NCBI GenBank assembly: GCA_031763025.1
Contig: JASSKH010000044.1
Span: 1,984,001-2,048,000 of the forward strand
DNA length: 64,000 nucleotides
DNA from: Macrocystis pyrifera
Taxonomy: Eukaryota > Sar > Phaeophyceae > Laminariales > Laminariaceae
Direction of reading: 5' to 3'
The translations under genes and the position numbers were made by a program. A model generated the notes under the pieces. That model was given only the letters and a program-made list of their open reading frames with translations. It did no database searches and was not told where the DNA came from. The number at the start of each line of letters is the position of its first letter. Within the stretch, counting starts at the first letter, position 1. Positions 7,801 to 62,275 of this stretch are shown piece by piece.

Positions 7801-10740
7801 CCAGGCCGTAGATGGTACCCTGAGGGACGCTCACCGACTTGTACCTGGGGTGGTCACGGGGGTGGTATAGCAATGCACCGTACCGGTATCGTCTAGTGTA
7901 CGAAGTACAGCAGCATAGCTTATCATATAGTTTTAGTGAATCCTACTATATTTGGTTGACTGCTATCGTATACCAGGTACTATAGTGTCGTAGCGCCCAG
8001 AATCGTCGCGCATTCCAGGAACTGATCGTGGCGGCCATGACTTCTCGTATCGTGTGGGCGTGACTTATCGTGTCTTACGGCGTAGTATCGTATCGTATCG
8101 TACCTTGTAGACTATGCTCTGGGGAACGTTCGCCGACTTCTACCTTCTACCTGCAACGTTGGATCTTCTTGTTTTTAGAACGATGGGCGCTGTCTTCACC
8201 CCAGGATAGGCATGTCATTAGCCCTTGACGTGGAGCCAACCAACTAAACTGACGATTGTTCAGGCGTCTGTCCACCCGTAAGGTTCTACCCCTTACCTTG
8301 AAACGCCATACCACTATACACGCAGCACGGCTACGGTACGCTGCGGCATGCTATGGTACAGCGTGGCACGGTACCGGACGGTAAGACATGGTACGCTATG
8401 GCATGGTGCCGTCAAATCCCGTGCGGTAAGATAAGGTACGGTACTGTAAAGCATGGTGCAGTCAAGCACGGTACGATAAGGTCCGGTATGATACAATATG
8501 GTACGGTACGGCAAGGCAAGGTACTTCATGGTAGGATAATGTACGGTGATAAGTTCCGGTATGATACGATGCATATAACTATAGGTACTACGACCAGCGG
8601 TCGTCAAATTATCATAGCTCATTTTCTCGCCTGTTCACTTCGGGTCCTCGAACGCTGTTGAGCACCAGCGTCTTGTCACCTCCTGCCGAAATGAGCCTGC
8701 CCAATAGCGCATCGAACGACAAAACGAGGGCCCGCCACCCCCCCATTCGTTAGTTAGGTCATTCGCTCAGGCGTCACTTTGTTGTCGCCGCGTCGAAACG
8801 CTTCCATCCCCATCTCTCACAGCAAGGTCGTCGGAGTTGTGCAGCAAAAACAAATGCCGTGTGGTTAACCTTCCTCCCCAATTGCACGCAACTATTTCAC
8901 CACTGCAAAAACCATCCCACAGTACTTCCCAGTGTTTCTTCCCCAAAAAGAGTGCGTGAGATTGTAAAAGGGTCACGCTACGCCGTTTGTTTTCCCCACG
9001 CTACCACCGAAAAACTGTGCGTGCAATTGTAAAAGGGTTCACACATCGGACCGATCGTGATCTATCTATCTGATCTGTCTACAGATAGATCATCTAGTTC
9101 TTCACCTGCCGCTGTGAGAGGTTGTGCAGGATCTGCTTAGTACAGACCCAACCCAGGAAACATGCGCTAGATGGTGTAGAATATACGGGTCTCACCCGGC
9201 AATATGAGCTAGATCACACAAGACCGGGAACACATATTCCTCGAACGAGCTAGCTCATGAAACGTGAATTGATGATCTATCTGTCCCAGTTCAAAAGGAG
9301 TTGCATTACGCGCCTCGCTTCCCCCATGTTACCCCCCCCCCCCCCCCCACCTGCTTCCGCCGCTCCTTCTGCATTGGCGCCGAGTTATGCATCGTGTCAA
9401 GCGTGGGGGTTTCTTGTTTCGAGATCTTACGTTGGGTGTAGATCGATTTTATTTGCGTTGGTTTCGTGCTTGCTTGTTGGTTGGGTACGCCATTGGGGAC
9501 GCTCAGGTTTCTGGTTCTCGAGTCAACAGCTGGGCCGTTGTCGTCACGAGAACGGCAGCAACCGAGACGGCAGAAACTTCAACAACTGCCGCAGCAACAA
9601 CAACGACGGTGACGCACCAACATGAACACCACCAATACTGATGGATACGCGGACGCCAACAGCGACGGCAACAGCACCAACGGCAAGAGCAAACACTATT
9701 ACGGGGGACCATAGTAAATAGGACCAAATATTGTTAGTAAAAATAGGCAAATATATAGTTTTTTAAATGTATACCATAGGTCCTATTAACTATGGACCCC
9801 CGTAATATTAATACGACACCAACACCAACATCAGCACCATCAACACCAACATCGCCAGCAACAACACCAGCAACAACACCGACACCGCCGTCAACACCGC
9901 CAGTGACACAAACAGCACCAACGTCAACAACACGAACCAACATCAAAACCACCACCCCATTCCCGACGCCAGCACCAGCACTAACACCAACACCAACAAC
10001 GCTAACAACAACACCAAGAGCAAACAATCCACACATCAACCGAACCGTCTACCATCTCCCTCCTTTACCCCGTACGTACCTCTTTCCGTCTTTCGAGAAC
10101 TTCACAGCGGTAACGGAGCCAGTATGGTAGTCCAGAGTCTTCACCAGCGGGAAAAAGCCCGCCGCTACGTCCCTCGCAGTCCCATCCCCATCCCCAACCC
10201 CACCTCCGACCCCAACCCCCGCCACCAGTCCCGCCTCCGTATCCCCCAAATCCTCTTCTTGTCGCCCGTCCACCTGTTTACTACCGCCGCACTTAAAACG
10301 GGTCGAAGACGCGTCAAAAACTCGCACAAGACGATCGCGACTCGCCGATGCCAAAAGCACCAGAGGCCGTCGATCGTCGTCAGGGTTGCCCTCCGCTCCG
10401 CTACCGCCACCGCTGCCGTGGATACCTGTTGCTGAGGCCCTTCGAAGCAACAATCTCTGTACGGCTAGAGGGTCGAGCTGATCGATCGCCTCCCAGCTCA
10501 GCACCGGCTCCCCCGTCCCGGCCCCCACTCCCTCTCTATGAACCCCCGTCAAGCCACCACTGCCACCGACATCGCTTCCGCTTGCCCTGACAACGACTCC
10601 GCCTTTCGGGGACCTCGACTTGGTCTCCGAAGCGACAGAAGTAGCGGTAGCGGCAGAGGTAGCAGAAGCGTCGCCAAGCGTGGGGAGCATCATCGGGGAA
10701 TAGGACAAGCAAAGAACCTCGGCATCATGGGCTTCCTGTG

Positions 10741-35500: not shown

Positions 35501-38500
35501 TGGGGCGCGATGGTGAAAGCTACTGTTACGGGGGACCATAGTAAATAGGACCGAGTATTGTTAATAAAAATAGGGAAATATATAGGTTTTTGGGTGTAGC
35601 GTAGGTCCTATTTACTATGGCCCCCCGTTACTATGGTCTCCCGTAATAGTATTAAAAACACGAGGTACTAATGTTTGTACCAGTACATGAGAAGAGCCGG
35701 AAGGGCAGGAGGCTCACCGTGGAATTTCGACACACGCCCAGCTCGCGATACACAACGTGGATCCGATCTGTGCCTGGGTAGACGGCACGGCCCACAGGAA
35801 GCCCCACACCAGGGCGATCCTAGAAGCCACCTGCATCAGCGTTGTCAGCCATGGGGAGCGCACGACTCCTAGGAGCGCGTGTACCACCTGCGGTCACGCC
35901 AGACAGGGGAGAGAGTGAGCGAAAACTTCCACCACTACATTCTCCGGGGTTTCAAAGGGAAGCTATGACAAAACCCCCCCCGACGGCTATCGAATCGGCA
36001 CACACGAAGGTCAACGTCGGGGTCAAGGCTACGCTCAAGGTCAAGGGCATGGTTAAGGGTAAGGTCAAGCTAAATTTCAAGGTCAAGGCCAGGGTCAAGT
36101 TCAGCGCCTAAGCTAGCGTTGCGGTCAAGGTCACGGATGGGGTCAAGGACGAGAGTATGCTACTGTTGCCGTTAAGGTCAAGGCTAAGGTCAAGGTCAAG
36201 GTGTTAATGTCGAGGTCAAGGCCAAATTCAATTTCAACGTCAAAGGCTAATATAGCCGTCAAGCTCGAGGCTAAGGTCAAGGGCAAGGTCAAGGGTACTC
36301 TACTGTTGTGGTTAAGGTCGGGGCTAAGGTCAAAGGCAAGGTCAAGATCCAGGTCAATTTCAAGGTCGAAGGCTAAGGTTACGGTCAAGGCCATGGCCAA
36401 TGTCAAGGGTATTCTACTGTTGCGGTTGGGGTCAAGGGTACCGACAAGGTCAGGACAGGGTCAAGGTCAAGGCCTAGGGCACGGTCCATGACAGCGTGAA
36501 CGTCGTGGTCGTAAGCGTTGAGGGTGAAATTCGCTTCTACTACAGCACTGAAAAAGTGGTCCCCACTCTAATTCCAAGTAGTTTATCCCCCAAGCCATGG
36601 GTGAACTTCCAAAGGGGATAAGCGAAGTTTAACCCTTGTGCTCAAAACAGTGCAACCTTTATTCCAGTCAAATTTCAAGTAGCTTGAACCGAAAACGGGG
36701 ATGCAGCTGGGTATCAACAACGTCGGAAAAATGAAGGATCGCTTGGTTGTTAAATCAATACAACTACGAGAAGGTTCTGTATAGTTGGCACGAGCACGTC
36801 GCAGGTCGTACATGAGGGTCTTGTGGGCATAACCCATTTTGAGAACAAAGCTATTGCGAGTTGCGACCACAAATATTTTTATTAATTATTGGAAAGCCTC
36901 GAGTTCGCGTGAAATACGCTATCAGTCTTACCTGAAATGCAAGGTAATTTTTTTCAGCTCATGTTACTGCTGTCTACACGTCCCTTATATATCGTATCAC
37001 ACTATCACATCGGGTGATAAGACAACACACCCCCTGAGACGAATTTTAGACCCTGTTTCCTCTAAAACACGGGGGGCACACACGACGAAAATGGTGGCGT
37101 TGCAAAGGTTTCGTCGAGAAGGTTGCATAGACGCATCGCTCGGCGTACTCAGTACGCCCTCCCCGTTCTCGAGAAATTCAGCTTTTTGAAAATCGTCCGG
37201 GGGGGGGGGGGGGGGGGGGGGGGTGTTATATATTATCACCCGGTGTGATACGGTATTTACGATCAGGCTGGTAATCGATTTCCACCTCAACGGCACACTA
37301 CATGATGAACGAGGTCTGACCATCTGCGCAATGTGGGCGCACAGCAGAACGACTACCATCAGGTCCGGTTCTGCACATACCGTCCAACACCTCTTGGTTG
37401 CAGCTACGTAATTTCCATCGGATATGGTCTTGCATCACCTCTGTATCACCTATTTTCGTAGGGCTGTGACATGGCTGAACTTCTCGGCTATTGATGGTTA
37501 GTGCTAGGGTGTGGCGGACAGAGTAAGCCAACTATTAATATTAATAACTGATAAGTACCATGGTATATTTTTCTGGCACTTAATACAGGGGAACATACCA
37601 ATCTGTCCCTAGACATAGGAACCGTTTGTATACTAATACTGAATGAAGATCATCCTTATATCTAGATACAGAGTGGTGGTATTCAGAACCAATTACGGCG
37701 TCTAATCGTTGAGGGAAGACTGTTTTTTGGGTCCATCGTTGGGTTGGTGTGATTACCACCACTCTGTCCCATTATATAAGCACCGCTTTTACACTGGTTA
37801 TTAAAGCAAACTTTTCTTATATTCAGGGGTTGCAGGTTTTACTATTACGGGCGACCATAGTTAACAGGACCCACGGTGCACACAAAAACACCCATATATT
37901 TCCATATTTTTACCAACAATATTTGGTCCTATTTACTGCGGCCCCCCACGACACTGTATGCAGTACTATGTAGTTCAATGCCCCCCACTACCATCACTGG
38001 AAACAAAAAACACAATATGAGCCACAATATCTCGCCAGTCACGCACGCACAAACAAGCACGCAGAACTCCGATTTTTTTCCGCGCAAGCAAAAAAATTGC
38101 AATGCTTAAGCCAACTATTAATATTAATACTTAACTAACAACCACTCTTGCGCGACTTACAGTCAGCCAGCTCACAACTCGTCCCTTTAGACTATCCCAG
38201 CAGCGCTTCTTTTTCGTGCGGCCAATGCTTCTTTCTAACAGTCACATCTCGTTGTCGCCATTTTCTCCCTCTGGAGTGCAAGGACAAGGTTTGAGTAACC
38301 GCTTTGGGGGAGAAACTACTTGGAACTAGAGAAAAATGTAAGCCTCGTATTCGTGTACAGCACAGTGCAGCAGTGAAGGGGGCTGGAGAAGGTTAATCCG
38401 TTTAGGACTGCACTCCCGCTGGGGGCACAAATCCCCTGAAATTGTAGTCAAATATTTGTTTCCGTAGAGTGCACCACTAAAAGGGTTTAGGGCAAAAGGT

Positions 38501-46316: not shown

Positions 46317-46719
46317 TATTAATACTTGAGAATTGGAGTGGGTTGTATCCCAAACGACGGGACTGCAGTCCTCAATCCACTCCGCTTGCTGCCCTTCCTT
46401 GCTCCAATCTTCCTTCTCAAATACACGCGAAGTTGTTGTTTACTCTGCTGTGGTAACCCTGTTTGAGGCTCTCCACTGTCCAGAGAGAACTATGGACCTT
46501 CAAAAAATGACGGGGGGGGTGGTATTAATAGTTGATTGCTACTGTCCCGAGTTGCCATGGAAGGGAGTGGCAGGAGGAGTCGTGCGGCATGCGCTTATCA
46601 CGATCCTTTCTACCCGAAGGTCTCCGGGCGCTCACGCTGCCCCTTTTATAGTACTGCGGTCCCGTTTCGGGGAGAAACCGAACTAGTTTATCCCAAGAAC
46701 GGGACCAAAAACGGGCCTT

Positions 46720-47616: not shown

Positions 47617-50405
47617 CCGTCGACACCCGGCACAACCAGTGTCCGTGCCGATTCTTCAATCCTGGAGAGATACAAGTTCTGTGGTCACAAAGCTACGCCA
47701 CGGAGATACTACGTTGCCACGTATGCAATGCAATGCCATGTCATCATACTGCGTACGACAGGCACGACATACACATTCCGTGACCTAGAGAAACGAAACG
47801 AAACAGAGAGAAAAAACAAGAAAGAAGAAGAAGACAATTCGAAACAGAAAAATAAGCAAGAAAGAAAAAAACAAACATATATAAATATTTTTAGAAAAAG
47901 AATATACCTGGTATATACGAGTATATATCAACAAACCATCGTGCCCCCTCCGCAGGGGATCTGGCAGACACTCGAAAAGAACGAGCTGGAAAAAAAAGGA
48001 AGAAGAAGAAAACACTATTATAGTCGTCGTCAACAGAGTAAGACTATGTGATATGGGTGGAGTATTCATGGGCTATAGATATAGATAATACGTTGCAGTC
48101 TTGTAGTCTCACGAATACGAGAATAATCCAAAGAATGGATTAACCCGGCGGATATTCCGTTAGTCGAGAGTATCGTTCTTTTAGGAATGTTCCCTAGGGT
48201 GGATAACCCCCTAGACGAGAGTAATGTTCCTTGACGCAGATAGGACTACGAAGTGAGAAGTTCTTATATTTACAGAAGAACGATCGGTAGCCATAGGAAA
48301 GTTCTGTAGGAGTACATCAGATAAGAGGAATTTAGGAGAGCTTGTGGCATGGGGTGGGACGAGTATATCTGGACGTCGAGTCCCGCCCCCCTACCTCTCA
48401 CTTCTCTACCAGAGCACCTCCTCAGCTCTCGCCATCAATAAGAAGATCTAAATCAGAAGAAGCGAAGCACTGCTTTCCAGCTGCCAGAACAACCTGCGTC
48501 CCTTACCACTACCCTTACCACTACCCTAGAGCGGTCTCCGCTTCACATCTGGCGTCGTCGGCAGGGTCAGTGGTTGTTCTCAGCGAACACTCCCTCTTCG
48601 TAGTGTTTGGGTTTTATTACGAGGTGTGGGGGGATCTATAGCCTCATTTCTTTTGTTTCGAATAGCCGCATCTTCGACCTCCTTTTTCCTGGCCGTTTGG
48701 GATGAACTTTGTCATCACCCTCCGACCATCTTGTGGTCTGCGTATACGACTATTCAGGGTGGGCTAATGTGATATGGGTGGAGTATTCATGGGCTATAGA
48801 TATAGATAATACGTTGCAGTCTTGTAGTCTCACGAATACGAGAATAATCCAAAGAATGGATTAACCTGGCGGATATTCCGTTAGCTTTTGTTTCGAATAG
48901 CCGCATCTTCGACCTCCTTTTTCCTGGCCGTTTGGGATGAACTTTGTCATCACCCTCCGACCATCTTGTGGTCTGCGTATACGACTATTCAGGGTGGGCT
49001 AATGTGATATGGGTGGAGTATTCATGGGCTATAGATATAGATAATACGTTGCAGTCTTGTAGTCTCACGAATACGAGAATAATCCAAAGAATGGATTAAC
49101 CCGGCGGATATTCCGTTAGTCGAGAGTATCGTTCGTTTAGGAATGTTCCCTAGGGCGGATAGCCCGTTAGACGAGAGTAATGTTCCTTGACGCAGATAGG
49201 ACTACGAAGTGAGAAGTTCTTATATTCGCAGAAGAACGATCGGTAGCCATAGGAAAGTTCTGTAGGAGTACATCAGATAAGAGGAATTTAGGAGAGCTTG
49301 TGGCATGGGGTGGGACGAGTATATCTGGGCGTCGAGTCCCGCCCCCCTACCTCTCACTTCTCTACCAGAGCACTTCCTCAGCTCTCGCCATCAATAAGAA
49401 GATCTAAATCAGAAGAAGCGAAGCACTGCTTTCCAGCTGCCAGAACAACCTGCGTCCCTTACCACTACCCTTACCACTACCCTAGAGCGGTCTCCGCTTC
49501 ACAACTATGAACCAAGGGAAAAATAACAGGCAAACCAGACAAAGCACAAAGCATCCTCCAGGTAGCGGCAGCACTTTATGGTACGAATAGCACAGCCAGG
49601 GTCTCCCTGCTGGTCCGCCTGGTACTTTGCTACCCTGTCTGCCCCCTTCGTCCAGCGTTCGTCAACTATGCCCGGCCCCTTGGCGTCAGACAATACGAAA
49701 CAGGCAAAAAGCAGGCTCGTCATCCACCCACGCCACACGACTCTTTCAATAAGGCTTATCAATCGGAGAAAGGAAGAGAAAGAAAATAAAATGGGAAATC
49801 ACATCGGGTCAGCGCAAAAAACAAGAAAATAAAATGAAACAAAAATAAACTAAAACTAAAGGAAGACAAAGGAAGACTACGTTCGAACCAGCTGCATCAG
49901 TTGGTGGTACGAGTAGTATAGGCATGTTCTACTTCTTAGTCTGCCCGGTACCTTGCTACCCTGTCTGCCATCTCCTTCCTACTTTCGTCCACTGCAGTTT
50001 CCCTTCTACTCCTGTTCCCCCCCCTCTCCTCATTCCCTTGGTCGGGTTTTCTGCTACTCCTCTTTGTTGCCCCTCCTCCCCCCATTCCCTTGGACACCAC
50101 CCACGGCGGATGCGCGGCGCTGCCTATTCAGCTCAGCCTCAGCCTCGTGCCACCTCACCATGAACCGTTCGGCTGCTTCCAGGATCCCCCGGTACCACTT
50201 CCCCGCCTTTTTTGCAGCAGTGGGCCACAGCGCGGTCTCAACTCCAAACACCAAGGGAGCAAGTTCCGTTGACCCTTCGGTGGCTCGGAACTCCCTAAGG
50301 TCTTCGACTATGCATCTATGCCAAGTCTTAACCTGTCCGCCAGGTCTCGGGTTCTCCCCACCAGCCATCGTCCCGAACATTACCCGACTGGGTAATCGAT
50401 AGTAC
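47617..50405 (-). mobile_element. LINE copy a, interrupted by an LTR element
   Basis: Minus-oriented, 3' end at left. It is split by the LTR element at 48047-49503; uninserted sequence resumes at GAACCAAGGGAAAA. The right part encodes the C-terminus of the LINE protein (50054-50410) and ends near CCCGACTGGGTAATCGATAG. Confidence 0.8.
48047..49503 (+). mobile_element. Small non-autonomous LTR retrotransposon with a third partial LTR
   Basis: 5' LTR 48047-48547 and 3' LTR 49003-49503, both 501 bp, start TGTGATATGGG and end TTCACA. ACTA target duplications at 48043-48046 and 49504-49507. The internal part begins two bases after the 5' LTR with TGGCGTCGTCGGCAGGGT, a plausible tRNA primer site. 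AGGGTGGG precedes the 3' LTR as a short purine tract. No gag/pol coding. An extra LTR start (48768-48884) plus a repeat of the internal 3' end (48885-49002) sits inside. Strand is set by primer site to purine tract direction. Confidence 0.88.
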
Positions 50406-50410: not shown

Positions 50411-50803
50411 TACGTAAGCAGTAAGCACAGCAGTCAGTACACAATTCAATGCCATGTCATCATGCTGGATATGACAGGCACAACAAACATATGCTACCAG
50501 GTGTGAAAGAGAGAAAACGAGAGAAAACAAAGAAAAAAAGAAAACATGTTGAAAGAGAGAAAGAAAGGAACAGGGAAAGGGAAGAAGAAAAAATATATAT
50601 ATCGTGCCTCCCCGCAGGGGATGTGGCAGACACTTGAAAAAAAGCGTGCTAAAGGAAAAAAAAAAAAACACCGCTGTACTTATAAACAAAGTGAGACTAA
50701 GAACCAAGGGAAAATAACAGGCAAACCGAAACACAAAGTACCATCCAGGTACGTAGCGGCAGCCGTTTGTGGTATGAGTAGCATAGCCAAGTTCTCCCTA
50801 CTA

Positions 50804-50908
50804 TTACGGGGGACCATAGTAAATAGGACCAAATATTGTTAGTAAAAATAGGCAAATATATAGGTTTTCGTGTGCACCGTAGGTCCTATTTACTATGGTC
50901 CCCCGTGA
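50804..50908. mobile_element. TTACGGGGG MITE at a site whose empty and scarred forms are in the window
   Basis: TTACGGGGGACCATAGTAAA to ACTATGGTCCCCCGTGA, with TA at 50802-50803 and 50909-50910. LINE paralogs show the same locus empty at 62079-62090 (CCCTACTAGGCTG) and scarred at 60202-60209. Confidence 0.95.
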
Positions 50909-51055
50909 TAGTCCGCTTGGGACCTTGCTACCCTGTCTGCCGTCTCCGTCCTGCGTTCGTTCGTAAACTGTGCCCCGCCCCTCGGCGTCAGACAATACGA
51001 AACAGGAAAAGCAGGCTCGTCATCCACCCACCCCGCACGACTCCTTTCTTGAGGC

Positions 51056-51892
51056 TGTAGCCAAAAGATACCAAGCCGTGGAGGTTTCAGTGTAATCGCA
51101 TGTGTGAGTGGAGCAGTGGCCGGGGATCCTGTGTGATGTCCCCTAGCCACCTGGCTCGTGGTCCGATGAGGATCACTCCGTGATAATACAAGCTCTAAGA
51201 ACAAGACTTACTGAGTGCGAGGCCAGCGAGACTGGTGGAGTCCCTCGCTGGAAGCCCTCTTGCTGATATCATCTGGCAGAGGCCATAATATCTAGATATT
51301 CGCGGAACTTCTGTTGGAGGAGTTTTCGGCTGCGGAGTATTGGGTCACAGCTGGGAAGGCAGTTGGCCCGTTGGACGGATCGAAACGGCTTGAAGCGCAC
51401 AGCAGGGGAGGACGCTCCGGGAGCTGGAGGACGCACAGGTCAGGCGGCAGTTTCTCCGTTATTACAGTAGAGTCCAGGTGGACTGCTGTGGATTATGGCG
51501 CACACGGCAAGCACGCCGCTGGTGGTAGGGGAGTCTCTGACTCCACCGAAATACGGAGAGGTGTGGACCGAGCAGGCCTCTCGTGTTTTTTACGCAGCGT
51601 ACCTCGATTATGAGGAACGGCTGCAGCCGTTCGTGTCGAGTGAACTCGCTTTGGGGGTGCTGTAGCCAAAAGATACCAAGCCGTGGAGGTTTCAGTGTAA
51701 TCGCATGTGTGAGTGGAGCAGTGGCCGGGGATCCTGTGTGATGTCCCCTAGCCACCTGGCTCGTGGTCCGATGAGGATCACTCCGTGATAATACAAGCTC
51801 TAAGAACAAGACTTACTGAGTGCGAGGCCAGCGAGACTGGTGGAGTCCCTCGCTGGAAGCCCTCTTGCTGATATCATCTGGCAGAGGCCATA
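51056..51892. mobile_element. TRIM-like element with identical 232-bp terminal repeats
   Basis: 51056-51287 and 51661-51892 are identical by eye (TGTAGCCAAAAGATACC to GCAGAGGCCATA), with 373 bp between. AGGC target duplications at 51052-51055 and 51893-51896 inside LINE copy b. A GGGGG tract precedes the right repeat. No TGG primer site directly after the left repeat, so LTR identity is not proven. Internal frames show no known domain. Confidence 0.7.
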
Positions 51893-52133
51893 AGGCTTAT
51901 CAATAGAAGAAGGGAAGAGAAAGAAATAAAATGAAGATCACAGAGGATCAAGCGCAAAAAAAAAAAAAAAAAAAAAAAACACAAATACGACCAAGGAAGA
52001 CCACGTTCGTTCGTACCAGCTGCACCAGTTGGCGGCACGAGTAGCATAGGCATGTTCTACTTCCTAGTCGGTCCGGTGCCTTGCTACCCTGTCTGCCATC
52101 TCCTTCCTACTTTCGTCCACCGCGGTTTCCCTT

Positions 52134-52560
52134 CTACCCCTCTTGTCCCCCCCATCCCCGCATTCCCTTGGTCGCGTTTCCTTCCACTCCTCTTGTTACC
52201 CCCCCTCTCCCCCCATTCCCTTGGACACCACCCACGGCGGATGCGCGGCGCTGCCTACTCACCTGTGCCTCATCCTCGTGCCACCTCACCATGAACCGTT
52301 CGGCTGCTTCGAGGATCCCCCGGTGCCACTTTCCCGCTTTTTTTGCTGCAGTGGAACACAGCAGTGCGGTCTCAACTCCAAATACCAAGGGGGCAAGTTC
52401 CGTTGACCCTTCGGTGGCTCGGAACTCCCCGAGGTCTTCGACTATGCATCTGTGCCGAGATTTAAACTGTCCGCCGGGTCTTGGGTTCTCCCCACCAGCC
52501 ATCGTCCCGAACATTTCCCGACTGGGTAATAGGTAGTACTTTGCTGTACAGGCAAACTTG
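52134..52560 (-). pseudogene. LINE protein C-terminal fragment (copy b)
   Basis: LPSREMFGTMAGGENPRPGG, FKSRHRCIVEDLGEF and AAERFMVRWHEDEAQVSRQR. Collinear with copy a, with substitutions and a three-base insertion near SAVEH/LLCSTAAKKAG. Confidence 0.6.
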
Positions 52561-52717
52561 GTACCTTGTGTATGTTTATCGAGACTGCTTTTTTTACGTT
52601 CCACTCTGACCGGAAATATAGTCTATGTTCATGCGATAATGTATAAATTAAAACGTTCTTATATTACCGGACAAAGTGGTTTCCTGGTATACTCATCTTG
52701 ACGTACCTGGTATAAGG

Positions 52718-53060
52718 CTTAGGTTGGGCAGGCGATTGGTTAAACTTTTACCAATACCGTAGCCCAACGGACTAAGACGTTTAACAAATGGCATCATGGA
52801 CACAGCAGCAGGACATGGGTCGTTGGTTGTGAGTTCGAATCCCACGTCCGCCGTGAAAATGCTTTGTGAAGAAAAGCGAGTTTCCTCATGTCAAGAATCT
52901 GAAAAAAATACTTCTGGATCCCCAAGAATTGGAACCGCGTGTTGGTGGCACGTGGACCCGTATATACGGTCCGTCCGTCCCAGTAGGGGCAGGGTGTTGT
53001 AAGGCTTAGATTGGGTAGGCGACCGGCTAACCTTTTAGCAACAACCCAACGGACCAAGAA
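52718..53060 (+). repeat. tRNA-like unit between direct repeats
   Basis: GCTTAGGTTGGGCAGGCGAT and GCTTAGATTGGGTAGGCGAC start two direct repeats of about 55 bp (52718 and 53001). Between them GTTGTGAGTTCGAATCCCAC is a clear B box/T-arm-like motif after TAGCCCAACGGACTAAGACG. Possibly another SINE; it does not fold as a complete tRNA by eye. Confidence 0.45.
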
Positions 53061-53137
53061 CTGCGGTCCGGTTTTGGGGACAAACCAGTCAAATTCCAGG
53101 TGTTTTGTCCCCGAAACGAGACTGCAGTCCTAAAAGG
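53057..53137. mobile_element. GCAGTCCCG palindromic MITE, copy 2
   Basis: ACTGCGGTCCGGTTTTGGGG and TTTGTCCCCGAAACGAGACT are inverted ends. More diverged than copy 1. Confidence 0.65.
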
Positions 53138-53165
53138 GTCTTCAGCACACCTGGTATTACTCGTA

Positions 53166-53276
53166 TTACGGAGGGCCATAGTAAATAGGACCTACGGTAC
53201 ACACAAAAACCTATATATTTACCTTCTTGTACTATTAATAACAATATCTGGTCCTATTTACCGTGGTCCCCCGTAA
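53166..53276. mobile_element. TTACGGAGG-type MITE carrying an internal TATTAATA scar
   Basis: Family copy in which the internal ACTAACAATAT reads ACTATTAATAACAATAT (scar at 53233-53240). TA at left 53164-53165. Confidence 0.9.
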
Positions 53277-53351
53277 AATAGTCAATTCCCCTTCTTATTT
53301 TTTCACGCAGACATTCCTCATCAAGGGGTTCAACGGCAGCAATTATTAGTA

Positions 53352-53456
53352 TTACGGAGGGCCATAGTAAATAGGACCTACGGTACACACAAAAACCTAT
53401 ATATTTATCTACTTTTACTAGCAAAATTTAGTCCCATTTACTATGGTCCCCCGTGA
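53352..53456. mobile_element. TTACGGAGG-type MITE
   Basis: TTACGGAGGGCCATAGTAAA to CTATGGTCCCCCGTGA, TA on both sides. Confidence 0.9.
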
Positions 53457-53644
53457 TAATAGTTGTTGCTGCTCTCGGACGCGGCCGAGGACTTTTTTGT
53501 TTTATTTCTTTCCTCGTGAGGTATTTGACATTTCCGTGCGTGTTGTTGAGATCGTGCGGAAGGACTTGGTACGTTTTCTCTAGGGCGGGGAAGAATAATA
53601 GTCGCACCACGCCTTTTTTTCTTCTTTTGCCCTTTGTTTGATCC

Positions 53645-54690
53645 TCCGAGATAGAGTTGCACCCCGTCTGACTGAGGACCGGGTACCCGGTGGCGGGTAC
53701 CCGGAACCGTCGGAACCGGAATCGTCCCGATCCAACTCACGGAACTGCGGGTATTTGCACCCCGGGTACCCGTCAGTTGTGGTATACGGAGCCCTCAAGA
53801 CTGGGGTATGGGTTGATTTATATATACACTGCTGTGCCCATAGACTCTCGTCTCTCGCCCCTGTCTGTCGCGGAGGGATTTGTCGCTGTAGTTAACTAAG
53901 TTGATTTTAGCTACGCTCGCGAGGTACGGCGGGGTACGGTTGCCTCTCTAAGAAGCGGAGCAACCCTAGCTGCACGATCAAGCCGACTGCCAGCGCGCGC
54001 GCCGCTGGTTTTGACGATTCGATCACATGGACGTGCGTTGCAACCTCGTGAAACATGATACCAGGCGATATAGGACCCACCGCATTTTTTGCGCGCTCGC
54101 GTGAACCTTCCGCGAAACGAGTAACATAAAAAAAAACAGTCAAGAATAACGACACTCCTTCATTATTTTTTCTTTGTTTCTGAATGTGGGTTGTTGTCAC
54201 ATGGTTTAATTGATGCAAGCTAATAAGCTTATATATTCGAAGGATTTCCCGATGACTTGACCAGCGAAATAAGGGTGGAAGGAAAATGGCACCGAGGATT
54301 GATCGCTTATGTTTAAGCTCCCCTCTCCCAACCTCTCCGCTCGATCCCACACAGAATATCCCACGTGCCTTCTGCCATATTTTTTCAGCATGGTTCATCG
54401 AGAGAGACGAAATGAAGTCTTGCCCTCCCACAGCCTTACCACGCTGCTGCTCACAGGCTGAAGGGGGAGTAAATAGTATATGGTAACCCGGGTACCCGGG
54501 TGCCCGGGTACTCGGGTACCGGTGTCCCGCTCAAAACCTAAAATGGGAGCAAAGTAGTGTCTGGTAACCCGGGTACCCGTGTCCGCCGGACCCCGGGTAC
54601 CCGGTTCCGGTTCCGTCTGGAACGCCTCCCACCCGGTCGCGTACCCGGTTCCAATTTTTGAGGCCGGGGTGCAACTCTACTCTGAGAACT
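53645..54690. repeat. GGGTACCC-rich inverted repeat pair
   Basis: 53645-53800 and 54480-54690 share AGAGTTGCACCCCG and GGGTACCCGG-rich stretches in opposite orientation (the latter ends GGGGTGCAACTCTACTCTGA). The 680 bp between include an unrecognised open frame on the minus strand (53907-54431). Confidence 0.6.
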
Positions 54691-54721
54691 TCTCACATTT
54701 TTTGTTCTTGCGCCCCGTTTG

Positions 54722-54850
54722 TGTGTTGTCTTCACAATAAATCGTCCTTTCTACCCAGCTTTATCAGTACGCTCACAGAAGTAGTATCCGGCCTGATTCC
54801 TTATCCTGGAGAGATACTAATTCTGTGGTCGCAGACTGTTTTTTGTGAGA
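54722..54850 (-). mobile_element. LINE 3'-end fragment, diverged
   Basis: GTGTTGTCTTCACAATAAATCG, CTTTCTACCCAGCTTTATC and CCTGGAGAGATACTAATTCT. Confidence 0.65.
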
Positions 54851-55857
54851 CAGAGAAAGACCAAAAAACAAAATTGAAAAAAAAACGCAAATTCAAGACT
54901 TCAAGGGTCAAGCAAGTGAAGTGCCAGCGTACCGGCTACGAGAACACAACAAGACAAGCAAGACCAGAAAACAATTAACATAAAGACAATAAAATCAAAT
55001 AAATTCTGCAATGGAACGTAGTACAAACGACGCGAGGAGATCAGGAAGGCTGGTGTTAATAGACGGCAAGCATACGTACTCAGGAAGGACAGATAGCTGC
55101 CGCACGGACGAAGCAACACGAAGGAGAGGAAGATACCGGCATGCTGACGGCGGGGCGGGGAAAGGAAACAAAGGGAGAGACAAGGCAAAAAAACAAGAAG
55201 GAAGAGAGACTGTACTTATGAAGAAAGTCTTGACGCGTGGGTTGATGACGAGCGTGGTTTGTTTATTTTGTACTGCCTGACGCATATTCTCCGGGGTTGG
55301 GGCACGATTGTCGAAACCAGGAAGGAGATGGCAGACAGGGTAGCAAAGTGCAGATCGACCATTAATAGTACGTAGAACCTGTCTATGCTAAACGTGCTAC
55401 AAACTTCTGCGGCTGCCTGGAAGGTGCTTTTTTTTGTCAAGCTTCGGTTTGCCTTGTATTTCCTTGCGCTGCGGCTGCCTGGATGGTGCTTTTTTTTTTG
55501 TCAAGCTTCGGGTTTGCCTTGTATTTCCTTGCGTTTTCAGTCTTGATCCGTTCATCTGTGGTGGTTTTTGTTTCTTCTGTTTCTTCTGTATTGTCTTGCC
55601 ACACCTCCTACGGGGAGGGGGGGGTGGACCACACTTTTCTTTCTCTTCTTTCGACTCGTTTTTCTTTGTTTCTTTCGATTTTTCTACATTTCATAGAATG
55701 TGTTCGTCGTTCCTGTCATGTGTGTGTTCTTCACATTAAGGGCCTTCTTCGCGAGAAACTTTTTTCAGGATGATCGAATAGGGAAAAAATGATTTGATTT
55801 GATTTGAATAGAATAGAATTTCGTTAATAATATGCCTTCGGGTCCTATCGAGGACTA
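54851..55857. other. LINE-related remnants without coding content
   Basis: 55225-55380 resembles the LINE region TGATGACGAGC-TGTTT-GTACTGCCTGACG and GGTAGCAAAGTGCAGA. 55410-55745 has a short duplication (GCTGCCTGGA-GGTGCTTTTTTTTGTCAAGC twice). No gene. Confidence 0.5.
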
Positions 55858-55962
55858 TTACAGGGGTCCGTAGTTAACGGGACCAAATTTTGTTAGTAAA
55901 AATAGGAAAATATATAGGTTTTTATATAAACCATAGGTCCTGTTAACTATGGATTCCCGTAA
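55858..55962. mobile_element. TTACGGGGG MITE
   Basis: TTACAGGGGTCCGTAGTTAA to AACTATGGATTCCCGTAA, TA on both sides. Confidence 0.85.
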
Positions 55963-56650
55963 TAGCGTAATTTGCTGAAGGGTTGAATAACGCACGAGGG
56001 TCAACGAACACCCGAGGGCAACCAACGAGGCGAGCGACGGCCCGCGTCCTCCCCGGGGCGCCACGGTCTGCGGCCGATTGTTTCTGCCGGCACCGCCGAA
56101 GAGGCTATCGCTCTTGGGATGTCTTGGGTGGCGTGCGCAACCCCAAAGCCCCACGCAGGCAGCAGCGACGAGGATACAGCGATTGAACTTCTGAGCGAAG
56201 TCGTGACCTGGTCGGTACTCGTGTGGTTTGCGAGGCAAAGAGGGAGGAAAAACTGGGTTTGCGACGGCCCTGTAAGTGTTTTAGGCGCCGCGGATGGTCT
56301 ACTCTGTGCTAGGGGTCGTCGGACCTCGCGCTGCGGCTGCTCCGGTGGCCCTGTCTCTCGGGAATGGTGGATCTCAGCTGTGAAGCAGTCGACGACACGG
56401 CTCAAGTTTTCGAGGCTTGCTTCGGTTTCAGGAGCATGCCACGTCGAGTTGGACAAACTCCCCAAATTGAATAACACGAAGAGCAAAAGAATTCCCAACA
56501 TATTTCTTTTCGAATTCATTTTTTTTTCGTTCGATTCGAATCTTAAGTTAAAACGCCTGCTTGGTGATCCACTTGTCGACCAATCATATACAAATCTAAT
56601 CAAACGAAAAAAATATTGGCGGAGTATCATAAAAAAAAAAAACTCGTTAA
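55963..56650 (-). other. Non-repetitive block with a possible secreted-protein ORF
   Basis: An open minus frame at 56001-56630 has an internal Met (MNSKRNMLGILLLFVLFNLG) followed by NSTWHAPETE, which looks like a signal peptide. About 160 residues follow without a recognised domain. A 206-codon plus-strand frame overlaps. Unconvincing as a gene without further evidence. Confidence 0.25.
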
Positions 56651-56654
56651 TACG

Positions 56655-56800
56655 GGCCCTAAACCGTTCTTTCTACCCGTCGAAATCCAGCACAACCAGT
56701 GTCCGTGCCGATTCTTCAATACTGCTGTCCTGTTATTAGAGAGATTCAAGCTCTGTACGAAGTAAAAAAACTGCGCCACAGCAGCAGAGATACTGCATTG
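56655..56800 (-). mobile_element. LINE 3'-end fragment with micro-insertions
   Basis: ACCGTTCTTTCTACCCGTCG, CAGCACAACCAGTGTCCGTG, with ACTGCTGT after TTCTTCAAT and an extra CAGCAG in CGCCACAGCAGCAGAGATAC. Confidence 0.75.
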
Positions 56801-56927
56801 TTTTGCAGTGAGCAGAGTAGACGCTGCGATGCCATCTCATCGTACTGGATATGACGGGCACGGCCTGTCGTTGCAGTGTCTACTATGCTTTACTGCATAC
56901 CACAGGTACCGATGTACAGCAGTACTA

Positions 56928-57033
56928 TTACGGGAGTCCATAGTTAATAGGACCTATGGTACACACAAAAACCTATGCATTTTACCTATTTTTACTAACA
57001 AAATTTGGTCCCATTAACTATGGACCCCCGTAA
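56928..57033. mobile_element. TTACGGGAG-type MITE inside LINE-like sequence
   Basis: TTACGGGAGTCCATAGTTAA to ACTATGGACCCCCGTAA, TA on both sides; right flank continues as TATCTCTGTGTCGTAG of a LINE 3' end. Confidence 0.9.
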
Positions 57034-57165
57034 TATCTCTGTGTCGTAGTTTTGTGACCACAGAGCTTGTGTTTCTCTACTGCTGTAGGATTGAACATTC
57101 GTAACGGGCGCTGGTTGTGCTGGACGCTGGATATCGACGGGTAGAAAATAACAGAGAACACACAC
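57034..57165 (+). mobile_element. LINE 3'-end fragment with a CTGCTG micro-insertion
   Basis: GTGACCACAGAGCTTGTGTT, then CTCTACTGCTGTAGGATTG where other copies read CTCTAGGATTG. Confidence 0.7.
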
Positions 57166-57960
57166 ATACATCTCGCCCGACGTTGGTTCGTCGTTCAGTA
57201 TTTGCTTGGGCTTGTTTTTCTTCTTTTATTTTTCTCTCTCCTGCGATATGTATCGTTTGTGTATATGTTCACACCAAACAGTCCTTTCCGAATAGTTGAT
57301 TCTTGTCGGCATCCAGCTCACCGGCCGTCCCGGTAGGCTAATAGTGCTGGCGCTCTCGAATCATACTAAGAGTTCGTACTGGGGTTTGAACCCCACGTGG
57401 TGGGTCGATTTTTGTAGTTTATTTGCGAAAAGAAAAAAAAATTGATCAACTGCTGAGAGCGCCCATCAACTTTTGTAGTAGCGTGGGTAGCCGCAAATTC
57501 GATGTGAGCCGGCGAGGGAAGTTCGTAGAAGGGCCGAAGTCTTGTCGCGATAAAAAAATGCCCTCCAAGGCAAGAACTGTAGCGCGAAGGAGGAAGAAGA
57601 ACCTGATTTGTGAACCCGGATGGATGTGAGTTACGACTTGGAAGGAGGGAGAGAAAGAAGGACGATCACGAAGCACGGGATCGGAAAACAAAAAACGGTG
57701 CGTCCGTGCCCGATTCTTAACACAAACTCTGTGGTAACGAAACCACGACACAGCGGCAGAAATGCTACATACATTACGTTGTGATAGTGCAGCAAAGCAG
57801 GGTAGACCGTGCACTTCCGTGTTCATCATACTGGGTACGTCATCGTGCTCGGGACGACAGGCACGTTAGAGAAGCTGCTTGGTAATCTGCGTATCGCACT
57901 TTAATACGCGATGGCTTTGCATTTGGCTACGTACGTACGTGATATCGTTGTCTTGCGATA
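57166..57960. other. Intergenic with a tRNA-like remnant
   Basis: Near 57330-57410, CGGTAGGCTAATAGTG and GGGGTTTGAACCCC suggest A- and B-box remnants, but a cloverleaf does not form. 57700-57850 is weakly LINE-like. No gene. Confidence 0.4.
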
Positions 57961-57964
57961 CCAT

Positions 57965-58046
57965 GTTGTTGTTGTTTGTTCTCTTCGTTCTTTCTACCCG
58001 TCGACATCCAGCACAACCAGTGTCCGTGCCGATTCTTCAATCCTAG
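57965..58046 (-). mobile_element. LINE 3'-end fragment, head to head with copy c
   Basis: GTTGTTGTTGTTTGTTC tail, TCTACCCGTCGACATCCAGC, TTCTTCAATCCTAGAGAG, then an abrupt switch to plus-oriented LINE coding sequence. Confidence 0.75.
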
Positions 58047-58459
58047 AGAGACATGGCGGACAGGTTAAGACTTGGCATAGATGCGTAGTCGAAGACCTTA
58101 GGGAGTTCCGCGCCACCGAAGGGTCAACGGAACTTGCTCCCTTGGTCTTTGGAGTTGAGACCGCACTGTGGCCCACTGCTGCAAAAAAGGCGGGGAAGTG
58201 GTACCGGGGGATCCTGGAAGCAGCCGAACGGTTCATGGTGAGGTGGCACGAGGTTGAGGCTGAGCTGAGCAGGCAGCGCCGCGCATCCGCCGTGGGTGGT
58301 GTCCAAGGGAATGGGGGGAGGAGGGGCAACAAGAGGAGTAGCAGAAAACCCGAGCAAGGGAATGCGGAGAGGGGGGGAAAGAGGAGTAGCAGGGAAACTG
58401 CAGTGGACGAAAGTAGGAAGGAGATGGCAGATAGGGTAGCCAGGTACCGGGCAGACTAA
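58047..58459 (+). pseudogene. LINE protein C-terminal fragment (copy c)
   Basis: Starts mid-protein at GGQVKTWHRCVVEDLREF, continues AAERFMVRWHEVEAELSRQR, and ends DESRKEMADRVARYRAD and a stop. This copy shows the likely native C-terminus. Confidence 0.6.
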
Positions 58460-59330
58460 GAAGTAGAACATGCCTATACTACTCGTACCACCAACTGATG
58501 CAGCTGGTTCGAACGTGGTCTTCCTTTGTCTTCCTGTTGTTTTTGTTTATTTTTATTTCATTTTGTTGTCTTCTTTGCGGTGACCCTATGTGATTTTCAT
58601 TTCTCTTCCTTTCTCCGATTGATAAGCCTTATTGAAGGAGTCGTGTGGCGTGGGTGGATGACGAGCCTGCTCTGCTTGTTTCGTACTGTCTGACACCGAG
58701 GGGCCGGGCATAGTTGACGAACGCTGGACGATGGTGGCAGACAGGGTAGCAAGGTACCAGGCGGGCCAGCAGGGAGATCCTGGCTGTGCTACTCGTACCA
58801 TAAACTGCTGCCGCTACCTGGAGCATGCCTTGTGCTTTGTTTGGTTTGACTGTTATTTTTACCTTGGTTCTTAGTCTTACTCTGTTGACGACTAGTGGTG
58901 TTTTCTTCTTTTTCTTTTTTTTTTCCAGCCCGTTCTTTTCAAGTGTCTGCCACGTCCCCTACGTGGGGGTACGATGGTTTGTTGCTATACTGAAGTATAT
59001 ACATATACCAGGTATATTTTTGTTTCTTTTTTTTTTATTTCTTTTCTCTTTCGAATTGTCTTTGTTTTTGTTTTTGTTTTTTCTCTTTGTTTCGTTTTTG
59101 TTGCTCTAGGTCATGGAATGTGCATGTCGTGCCTGTCGTACGCAGTATGATGACATGGCATTGCATTACATACGTGGCAACGTAGTATCTCTGTGGCGTA
59201 GTTTTGTGACCACAGAACTTGTATCTCTCTAGGTTTGAAGAATCGGCACGGACACTGGTTGTGCTGGATGTCGACGCGTAGAAAAGAACGGTTTAATGTG
59301 AAGAAAACAACAACAACAACAACAACAACA
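58047..59330 (+). mobile_element. LINE copy c, plus strand, AAC tail
   Basis: About 1.28 kb: truncated coding part (58047-58459), untranslated region with GCAGACAGGGTAGCAAGG and AAGTGTCTGCCACG, then the common 3' end and eight AAC units (59307-59330). Confidence 0.85.
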
Positions 59331-60055
59331 TGTACGTCTGTTCGTTGGGAATGCACGTACTGCTGTAGTTTGTGACCACAGAGAGTTCGACGGGTATGTA
59401 TACAGAAAGAACGGTCAGGACTGCACTCCCGTTTGGACACAACTTGCTTGGTATTGGAGTTAAATACCTGGCAGGTGCGTCTGCTGTGCAGTGCAGAACA
59501 CACAAGATAGCTGCTGTCTTTCATAGGGTGAAGAAAGCGCGGGCACTGCTGCTGCTGCTGCTGCTGCTGTACGTGCTGAATGTCGACCGGTACTCTGCAC
59601 GGCGGGTGGCTGGTGGGGTTGGAAATGGCAGTGTGGGGTGAAATGGACAACCAATTAATCGCGGAAGGGCAACATCAGCAACTATTATTAATACTACAAC
59701 AACAACGACAACGGCGGTAACAACAGCAAAGCAACAGCAGCAATACGTTACGGCGTTATTATGAGACCTGCATAGACATGATGCATACCACTATGTTCCT
59801 GAATATACAGATCGTGTTGATGTAGTATTAGTATACGAAACGTCCTAATGTTCAGGGACAAAGTGGTTTGTGGTTTCATATTTATAGTTCGCATATTCGT
59901 TTACTCTGAGGATGAACTACTGCTGTGTACTGCTGTATATACTATAATACCTGGTACCAGTACTCGGTAGTATCAAGGGTTCACACTGCTGTTTCCTCCT
60001 GTTGAAAACACAGACAGCACTACGTTCGTACAGGAGTAGCATCTTTCTCTTCCTA
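59331..60055. other. Intergenic with microsatellites
   Basis: CTG run at 59546-59571, a GCAGTCCCG-MITE half at about 59417-59470, and TATTAATA at 59686-59693. No gene. Confidence 0.5.
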
Positions 60056-60760
60056 TCTTCTATTGATAGGAGTCGTGTGGCGTGGGTGGATGACAAGCCT
60101 GCTTTGCTTGTTTCGTAGTGCCTGACGCCGAGGGGCGGGGCACAGCAGTTGACGAACGCAGGACGGAGACGGCAGACAGCGTAGCAAGGTCCCGAGCGGA
60201 CTATTAATAGTAGGCAGAACTTGGCTATGCTACTCGCACCACAAACTGCTGCCGCTACCTGGAGCGTGCTTTGTGCTTCGGTCTGCCTGTTATTTTCCCT
60301 TGGTTCTTAGTCTCACTCTGTTTATAAGTAGTTTGGTGTTTTTTTTTTTTTTTTGTATTTTTTTTTCTCTAGCGCGCTTTTTTTCAAGTGTCTGCCACAT
60401 CCCCTGCGGGGAGGCACGACAGTTTTTTTTTTTCCTGTTCTTCTTTCCTTTCTCTCTTTCGATTTTTTTTTTTTTTTTTTCTTGTTTTTGTTTTTCCTTG
60501 TTTTCTTCCGTTTTCTCTCTTTCCAGTTTCAATAGAATAATATGTATGTCGTGCCTTTCGTATCCAGTATAATGGCATGACATTGCATTTTCTACTTGCT
60601 TCATACGTAACAATGATGTAGTATCTCTGTGGCGTAGCTTTGTTTGTGACCACGTAGTAACTTGTATCTCTTCAGGATTGAAGAATCGGCACGGACACTT
60701 TGTGCTGGATGTCGACGGGTAGAAAGAACGGTTTAATGTGAAGAACACACAACACAGTAG
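60056..60760 (+). mobile_element. LINE copy d, plus strand, 5'-truncated, with scar
   Basis: From GTCGTGTGGCGTGGGTGGAT to GTGAAGAACACACAAC. Long T runs at 60338-60370 and 60461-60480. Contains TATTAATA at 60202-60209. Confidence 0.85.
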
Positions 60761-61779: not shown

Positions 61780-62275
61780 AAATGCAGGGAGATAACGAAA
61801 GGAAACAAACAAGCAAAAACGAACAAACAGAAAGCAAAGAAACAAATCAAAGAGAAAAAGGAAAGGGAAATGGAAAAGCAAAATATGTCGTGCCTTCCCT
61901 CAGGAGTTGTGGCAGACACTTGAAAAGAACGAGCTAAAGAATCAGCACCACTATTAATACATGCTACATACAAACAGATTAAGACTGAGAACACAGGGAA
62001 ATGACAGACAAACCGAAGAACAAAGCACCCTTCAGGTAGCCGCAGCAGTTTGTGGTGTTGGTAGCATAGCCAGGTTCTCCCTACTAGGCTGTCTGGTACC
62101 TTGCTACCCTGTCTACCGTCTCCGTCCTGCGTTCGTCAACTGACTGTGCCTCGCCACCGGAGAGGATGCGTCAGACAATACCAAACAAGCAAAGTAGGCT
62201 CGTCATCCACCCACGCCACACGACTCTTTTCGTAAGGACAAGGAGAAAGAAAGAAAGAAAGATAGTGTAATATGA
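61780..62275 (-). mobile_element. LINE copy e, internal part, minus strand
   Basis: GTCGTGCCTTCCCTCAGG, GTGGCAGACACTTGAAAAGA, and the empty MITE site CTCCCTACTAGGCTGTC at 62079. TATTAATA at 61952-61959. Confidence 0.8.

What the first reader, a model, noticed from the sequence alone, without database searches (positions are those of the whole stretch)
50804..60209. One insertion site seen filled, empty and scarred within the same window
In LINE paralogs the site reads CCCTAC-TA-GG when empty (62079-62090). It is filled by a MITE with TA on both sides at 50802-50910. On the opposite strand at 60202-60209 it reads CCTAC-TATTAATA-GTCC. This shows TA target duplication and an excision scar of TTAA, i.e. 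two bases kept from each end (TTAC.../...GTAA). Tc1/mariner elements typically leave two to four bases from the ends, so the scar points to cut-and-paste mobilisation by a transposase of that group.
Basis: partly seen in the sequence, partly recalled or inferred. Interest (0 to 1): 0.9.

Follow-up and report, generated by a model that had tools for sequence, protein, structure and literature searches.

The report
Kelp transposon excision scars, genome-wide
A tiny mobile DNA element of giant kelp appears to have jumped into and out of the same letters of a repeated sequence many times, leaving a fixed eight-letter scar that is far commoner in this kelp's DNA than chance would give and so may serve as a record of past jumping.

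Summary
The window lies in the giant kelp assembly. A 105-bp MITE (50804-50908, TA on both sides) sits in a repeat. The matching site in other copies reads TA (62079-62088) or TATTAATA (60202-60209, minus strand), with flanks aligning at 89% on both sides. A genome-wide census of the site gave 156 matches, 100 printed: 74 plain TA, 8 exact TATTAATA, 18 others such as CAG, CTAG and TTTAA. Filled and scarred copies scatter on the repeat's tree (9 scars need 9 changes, 8 fillings need 8), so the states are mostly independent events in paralogs, not one locus caught three times. TACTATTAATAGTA, the scar with both target half-sites, occurs 1104 times in the genome; its letter-reversed control 5 times. 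Among 20 possible end-retention products only TTAA is clearly enriched. Best reading: cut-and-paste excision by a TA-inserting, Tc1/mariner-like transposase. None was found; two family searches were weak. Hotspot re-insertion with footprints is known for plant Stowaway MITEs; scale and host look new. 'LINE' is unverified.

The parts
50802..50803 (+). left TA of the target duplication, filled site
50804..50908 (+). 105-bp MITE, ends TTACGGGGGACC...GGTCCCCCGTGA, about 27-bp inverted repeats
   Evidence: 105 copies of 80 or more aligned bases in the 356 kb held
50909..50910 (+). right TA of the target duplication
60202..60209 (-). footprint TA-TTAA-TA at the same site of a paralogous repeat copy
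   Evidence: flanks 89% identical to the filled copy on both sides
62079..62088 (+). empty site CCCTAC-TA-GG in another repeat copy
49504..49735 (+). repeat copy with empty site (reads TG)
58648..58886 (-). repeat copy with empty site (reads TG)
55235..55466 (-). more diverged repeat copy with a mutated footprint at the same site (plus strand reads CATTAATA, about 55360-55367)
53233..53240 (+). TATTAATA inside another MITE copy (53164-53276) where most other copies read TA: insertion and excision nested in a MITE
37533..37546 (.). TATTAATATTAATA, readable as two footprints in a row
38116..38129 (.). TATTAATATTAATA, second such site, within a 23-bp match to the first
46317..46324 (.). TATTAATA abutting a MITE end: insertion beside an existing footprint
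9806..9813 (.). TATTAATA abutting a MITE end: insertion beside an existing footprint

Best explanation
The 105-bp element is a non-autonomous TA-inserting MITE with ends TTACGGGGG. It prefers the palindromic target TAC-TA-GTA. It moves by cut-and-paste: a transposase supplied in trans cuts a few bases inside the ends, so that four end bases (most simply TT from one end and AA from the other) stay with the flanks, and end joining leaves TA-TTAA-TA. The repeat's CTAC-TA-GTCC is close to the ideal target, so it has been hit and vacated repeatedly in different copies. Shown: TA flanks, target preference, scattered filled and scarred copies, one dominant TTAA product, genome-wide excess of scars carrying the target signature. 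Inferred: that a transposase (Tc1/mariner-like) makes the cut, the two-plus-two split, how the ends are joined, and that most TATTAATA sites come from this family and not from another with TT...AA ends.
For: Census of the site: 156 genome matches, 0 for the reversed pattern; 100 printed: 74 TA, 8 TATTAATA, 2 TTTAA, 16 single others incl. CAG, CCG, CTA, TAA, CGAA, CTAG. TACTATTAATAGTA 1104 against 5 for the reversed palindrome. TA flanks: 98 of 121 exact TTACGGGG ends in 356 kb are preceded by TA; 48 of 65 copies with both ends recognised (of 103) have TA on both sides. Sites of the form TA-NNNN-TA with a paralog: TATTAATA 8 with mostly 6-bp-shorter paralogs, 1 same-length, 2 undecided, 73 without paralog, of 84; other such 8-mers 57 shorter, 403 same-length, 4 ties, 52 undecided, 1194 without, of 1710; Fisher 8:1 against 57:403 p = 7e-7. 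Target signature: 'AC' before the TA in 19 of 86 filtered TATTAATA half-sites against 135 of 2510, p = 3e-7; MITE flanks T .57, A .65, C .60 at the three preceding places, n = 124. Of 20 end-retention products tested only TTAA stands out, 114 strand-counts against 13.2. Tree of 36 copies: 9 scarred tips need 9 changes, 8 filled tips need 8. For 8 of 9 filled copies the closest MITE held is one elsewhere; L014 holds it in reverse orientation. L025 has a MITE beside a TATTAATA at this very site.
Against: No autonomous element or transposase was found: PF13358 gave 0 matches from 3 candidates (it rang in 3 control genomes), PF01359 gave 0 from 20 and rang in no control genome; no long element with these ends is in the 356 kb held. 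The 8 supporting sites read TA mainly in 5 (in 60202 itself 6 TA, 5 CA); the paralogs of the other three read CA, TG/TACA or AA. Fetched repeat copies came from queries carrying the scar or the MITE, so their proportions are biased, as is the MITE set (51 of 105 copies lie in loci fetched with one MITE). Support on the 240-bp tree is modest, and shuffled labels need 8.3-8.7 changes, so the scatter equals random placement. Other short products are mildly raised: TATATA 2.2-fold (also a microsatellite), TATTTA 1.8-fold. The count of filled copies under the same strict pattern did not complete (last try). About 12% of TATTAATA in the sample is expected by chance.
Confidence: 0.88

Rival explanations
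1. TATTAATA is the preferred target, not a scar: the element is CGGGGG...CCCCCG and duplicates the central TA of TAT-TA-ATA, so TATTAATA sites are unfilled targets.
For: The letters fit exactly: TATTA-CGGGGG...CCCCCG-TAATA is what insertion into the middle of TATTAATA would give.
Against: At the host site uninserted copies read TA far more often than TATTAATA (74 to 8 of 100 printed), and paralogs of other TATTAATA sites are mostly 6 bp shorter (8 to 1). A target preference does not explain 1104 copies of TACTATTAATAGTA against 5 of the control, nor a 6-bp gain inside another MITE copy.
Confidence: 0.03
2. The MITE is lost without a transposase, by slippage or microhomology repair across its hairpin, pairing the TA in TAT[TA]C with that in G[TA]ATA, which also gives TATTAATA.
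For: The element's ends are long inverted repeats and the 2-bp microhomology gives the same letters.
Against: Slippage should leave a range of hairpin remnants. In 264 kb 12 strings of 8-86 nt matched loose ends and none begins like the element, against 21 full-length copies with the same ends and 57 TATTAATA. That test sees only well-kept ends: BLAST finds 54 copies in the same 264 kb. The same site also shows CAG, CTAG and CGAA products.
Confidence: 0.08
3. The octamer at 60202 is chance mutation or ancestral sequence of the repeat and unrelated to the MITE.
For: A single case would prove little, and the 60202 copy groups with empty copies L059/L067 (support 0.83).
Against: The same 6-bp gain recurs at this site and elsewhere, with the MITE's target signature.
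Confidence: 0.02

Closest known systems
Stowaway MITEs in Triticeae beta-amylase intron 4 (Mason-Gamer 2007, PMC1925063; passages read)
   Same: TA duplication, several independent insertions into and losses from one site, footprints of short end fragments, insertion next to an old footprint; one footprint is TACT...AGTA.
   Different: One gene across many grass species; here one site across many copies of a repeat in a single genome, and a footprint counted genome-wide. Different end sequence.
Plant mariner-like elements Osmar5 and Ppmar2 in yeast (PMC9632168; passages read)
   Same: Staggered cut leaving 1-4 nt between the two TAs after excision.
   Different: Ppmar2 footprints are described as diverse; here one product dominates. 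Assayed there, inferred here.
Mariner-Tc1 MITEs of Ectocarpus (PMC12477816; passages read)
   Same: Brown alga; 17 Mariner-Tc1 families, 11,912 copies, most of them non-autonomous MITEs.
   Different: The words footprint, excision and mite were not found in that main text; no sequence comparison was made here.

Membership tests
Tc1/mariner-type MITE | TA target-site duplication | tested here: met
   majority of 103 copies reads TACTA|TTACGGGGG...CCCCCGTAA|TAGTA; 98 of 121 exact ends preceded by TA, 48 of 65 copies with TA on both sides
Tc1/mariner-type MITE | terminal inverted repeats, too short to code for a transposase | tested here: met
   105 bp, about 27-bp inverted ends
Tc1/mariner-type MITE | excision leaving a footprint of 1-4 end bases between two TAs | tested here: met
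   TTAA between two TAs, by comparison of copies, not by an excision assay
Tc1/mariner-type MITE | DDE/D transposase of an autonomous partner with the same ends | tested here: inconclusive
   PF13358 and PF01359: 0 matches, weak searches; no long element in 356 kb
Stowaway | TIR beginning CTCCCTCC (recalled) | tested here: not met
   ends are TTACGGGGG
piggyBac | TTAA target duplication and seamless excision (recalled; also stated in the abstract start of PMC7351741 listed) | tested here: not met
   flanking repeat is TA; most empty sites read TA
PIF/Harbinger | 3-bp target duplication (recalled; TNA/ANT stated in PMC12477816 passages) | tested here: not met
   consensus flanks agree as direct repeat over TA only
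LINE (host repeat) | reverse transcriptase | tested here: inconclusive
   10 of the 52 listed ORFs scanned, no RT domain; repeat boundaries not resolved

The most novel reading that the evidence does not exclude
The giant kelp genome keeps roughly as many empty footprints of this MITE family as resident copies (extrapolated from 200 kb: 102,000 TATTAATA, interval 62,000-150,000, about an eighth expected by chance, against 97,000 MITEs, interval 46,000-153,000). Excision would then be as common a fate as staying, and repeated sequences would act as recorders in which the footprint spectra of several TA-inserting families (TTAA, CAG, CCAGG and others) can be read and dated.
Probability: 0.5. Interest if true: 0.75.

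Novelty: new member of a known kind. Interest (0 to 1): 0.6.

Why it matters
How MITEs reach huge numbers by a cut-and-paste route, and how often they leave again, is hard to read because a vacated site can look ordinary. Here the product is so regular that scars can be counted genome-wide and set against resident copies, and a multicopy repeat with a near-ideal target gives a replicated record. It also gives the ends and the expected product needed to find and test the transposase.

Tried and rejected
Target-motif, slippage and chance readings were weighed and set aside above. An unbiased scan of indels in 356 kb gave 148 of 6 bp, 18 of them of the TA-X-TA form, TTAA commonest with 4: supportive but thin. 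An ungapped paralog test (of 86 TATTAATA sites 10 E, 1 E and F, 1 F, 72 none, 2 low complexity; controls 119 E, 60 both, 382 F, 1051 none, 134 low complexity, of 1746) contains self-like matches in AT-rich stretches and was replaced. One search left self matches in its counts and was used only to see examples. One search's own tally of TA at both ends was off by one base at the right end and was not used; one search replaced it. anchors on TA, so it shows target preference, not the duplication. No autonomous element among unpaired ends (13 unpaired, 102 pairings). PF13358 and PF01359: nothing. A second-family element with CC[AT]GG ends: two weak candidates. GTACTAN{1,8}TAGTAC (2571 against 706 control) was not used, because most strings were not printed.

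Literature: searches of the held library; no paper on excision footprints in kelp was listed (one search showed 12 of 18, 8 of 9, 8 of 12). Papers were seen as listings or passages only; only open-licence PMC papers are held.
Full report
WHERE. The window is bases 1984001-2048000 of contig 134 of a 537,376,219-base, 223-contig genome. The giant kelp paper (PMC10498591, passages read) gives 537 Mb, 35 scaffolds plus 188 contigs and N50 13,669,674, which equals the length of contig 196. The genome is therefore very probably the Macrocystis pyrifera assembly, from a haploid female gametophyte.

THE THREE STATES. Filled, scarred and empty sites are as described, with small corrections: the MITE is 105 bp, 50804-50908, its right end is GTGA in this copy, and the empty string ends at 62088. 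The window holds at least three more copies of the site: two empty ones reading TG (49.5 and 58.6 kb) and one with a mutated footprint (55.2 kb).

CENSUS OF THE SITE. A search with the scarred copy gave 40 scored hits of 2978 candidates; 20 were fetched. Of these 20, 7 carry TTAA footprints (one mutated), 9 are empty and 4 have other inserts: CAG, TTTTA, TTGT, TTAT. This set is biased because the query carries the scar. The pattern TCTCCCTACTAN{0,14}GTCCGC does not favour any state up to 14 inserted bases: 156 matches, 0 for the reversed control, 100 printed: 74 TA, 8 TATTAATA, 2 TTTAA, 16 single others. So among the printed matches TA is the usual state and TATTAATA a recurrent exception. Filled copies fall outside this pattern and were not counted.

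INDEPENDENCE. On a tree of 36 copies with the site removed, 9 scarred tips need 9 changes and 8 filled tips need 8, also with weak nodes collapsed. Shuffled labels need 8.3-8.7 scar changes on average, so the scatter is what random placement gives. Support values are modest. The scarred copy at 60 kb groups with empty copies (0.83); another scarred copy, L053, groups with the filled copy at 50.8 kb (0.91). Nine filled copies were compared: for 8 the closest MITE held lies elsewhere, and L014 holds it in reverse orientation. L025 has a MITE beside a TATTAATA at this site, and another TATTAATA 16 bp on where most other copies read TA.

GENOME-WIDE. TATTAATA: 19 against 1.9 expected in the window and 38 against 4.7 in 20 x 10 kb, where two AT microsatellite words are commoner. 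TACTATTAATAGTA: 1104 in the genome, reversed control 5. Where paralogs exist, TATTAATA sites are mostly gains of 6 bp (8 against 1, 2 undecided; all other TA-NNNN-TA 8-mers 57 against 403). The exception lies inside a MITE where other copies have TATTTTTA; in three of the eight the paralog does not read plain TA. Bases beside TATTAATA carry the MITE's own target signature even after removing host-repeat sites, MITE-abutting sites and doubles (19 of 86 against 135 of 2510, p = 3e-7).

MECHANISM. Of 20 products keeping up to nine end bases, only TTAA is clearly enriched (114 strand-counts against 13.2). TATATA (2.2-fold, also a microsatellite) and TATTTA (1.8-fold) are weaker, and longer products show no clear excess. 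Strings of 8-86 nt with loose element-like ends numbered 12, none of them recognisable remnants, but the test sees only well-kept ends. The letters TTAA fit two plus two, three plus one or one plus three end bases. A cut two bases inside each end followed by joining of both overhangs is the simplest account; a four-base overhang annealing by its central TA with the last base replaced would also do. Three-base overhangs would rather predict TATTATA, which is near expectation (52 against 46.9). The 1-4 nt footprints of Osmar5 and Ppmar2 (PMC9632168, passages) are of the same kind.

OTHER FAMILIES. The same host site shows CAG, CTAG and CGAA products, one printed case each. Among 103 MITE copies, TA-flanked gains inside the element are CCAGG or CCTGG in 3, CCCGGG or CCCTGG in 2, CAG in 1 and TTAA in 1, beside other small insertions, and TACCAGGTA is 61 against 2.2 expected in 264 kb. 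Several TA-inserting families seem to have left footprints.

KNOWN OR NEW. Recurrent insertion and excision at one site with footprints is known for Stowaway in Triticeae (PMC1925063, passages). Ectocarpus has many Mariner-Tc1 MITEs (PMC12477816, passages). The kelp family, its fixed TTAA product and the genome-wide count were not listed by the nine searches named under Tried and rejected. I file it as a new member of a known kind.

LIMITS. Extrapolations rest on 200 kb. Tc1/mariner membership rests on duplication and footprint, not on a transposase.

Noticed in passing
window and L031-L050; MITE copies in L035, L015, L013: TACCAGGTA occurs 61 times against 2.2 expected in 264 kb, and TA-flanked CCAGG/CCTGG gains occur inside three MITE copies: probably the 5-nt footprint of a second TA-inserting family. 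Its flanks do not show the TAC signature.
   Followed up: partly
L043:2263-2730 and L012:2352-3074: Two candidate elements of 468 and 723 bp with CC[AT]GG inverted ends flanked by TA, possible sources of the CCAGG footprint.
   Followed up: no
window and L031-L050: TACAGTA/TACTGTA sites also carry the AC-TA target signature (29 of 134 half-sites), as expected for a CAG-leaving mariner with a similar target.
   Followed up: no
window 49504-50398, 51890-52543, 58048-58875: The host repeat seems to hold two related sub-units (a second weaker copy of the site about 0.3 kb on), and several copies lie within 13 kb on both strands.
   Followed up: no
small contigs of G000 such as C12, C33, C57: Matches to GTACTAN{1,8}TAGTAC recur on small contigs in pairs about 2.85 kb apart, as if these contigs held copies of one repeated unit.
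   Followed up: no
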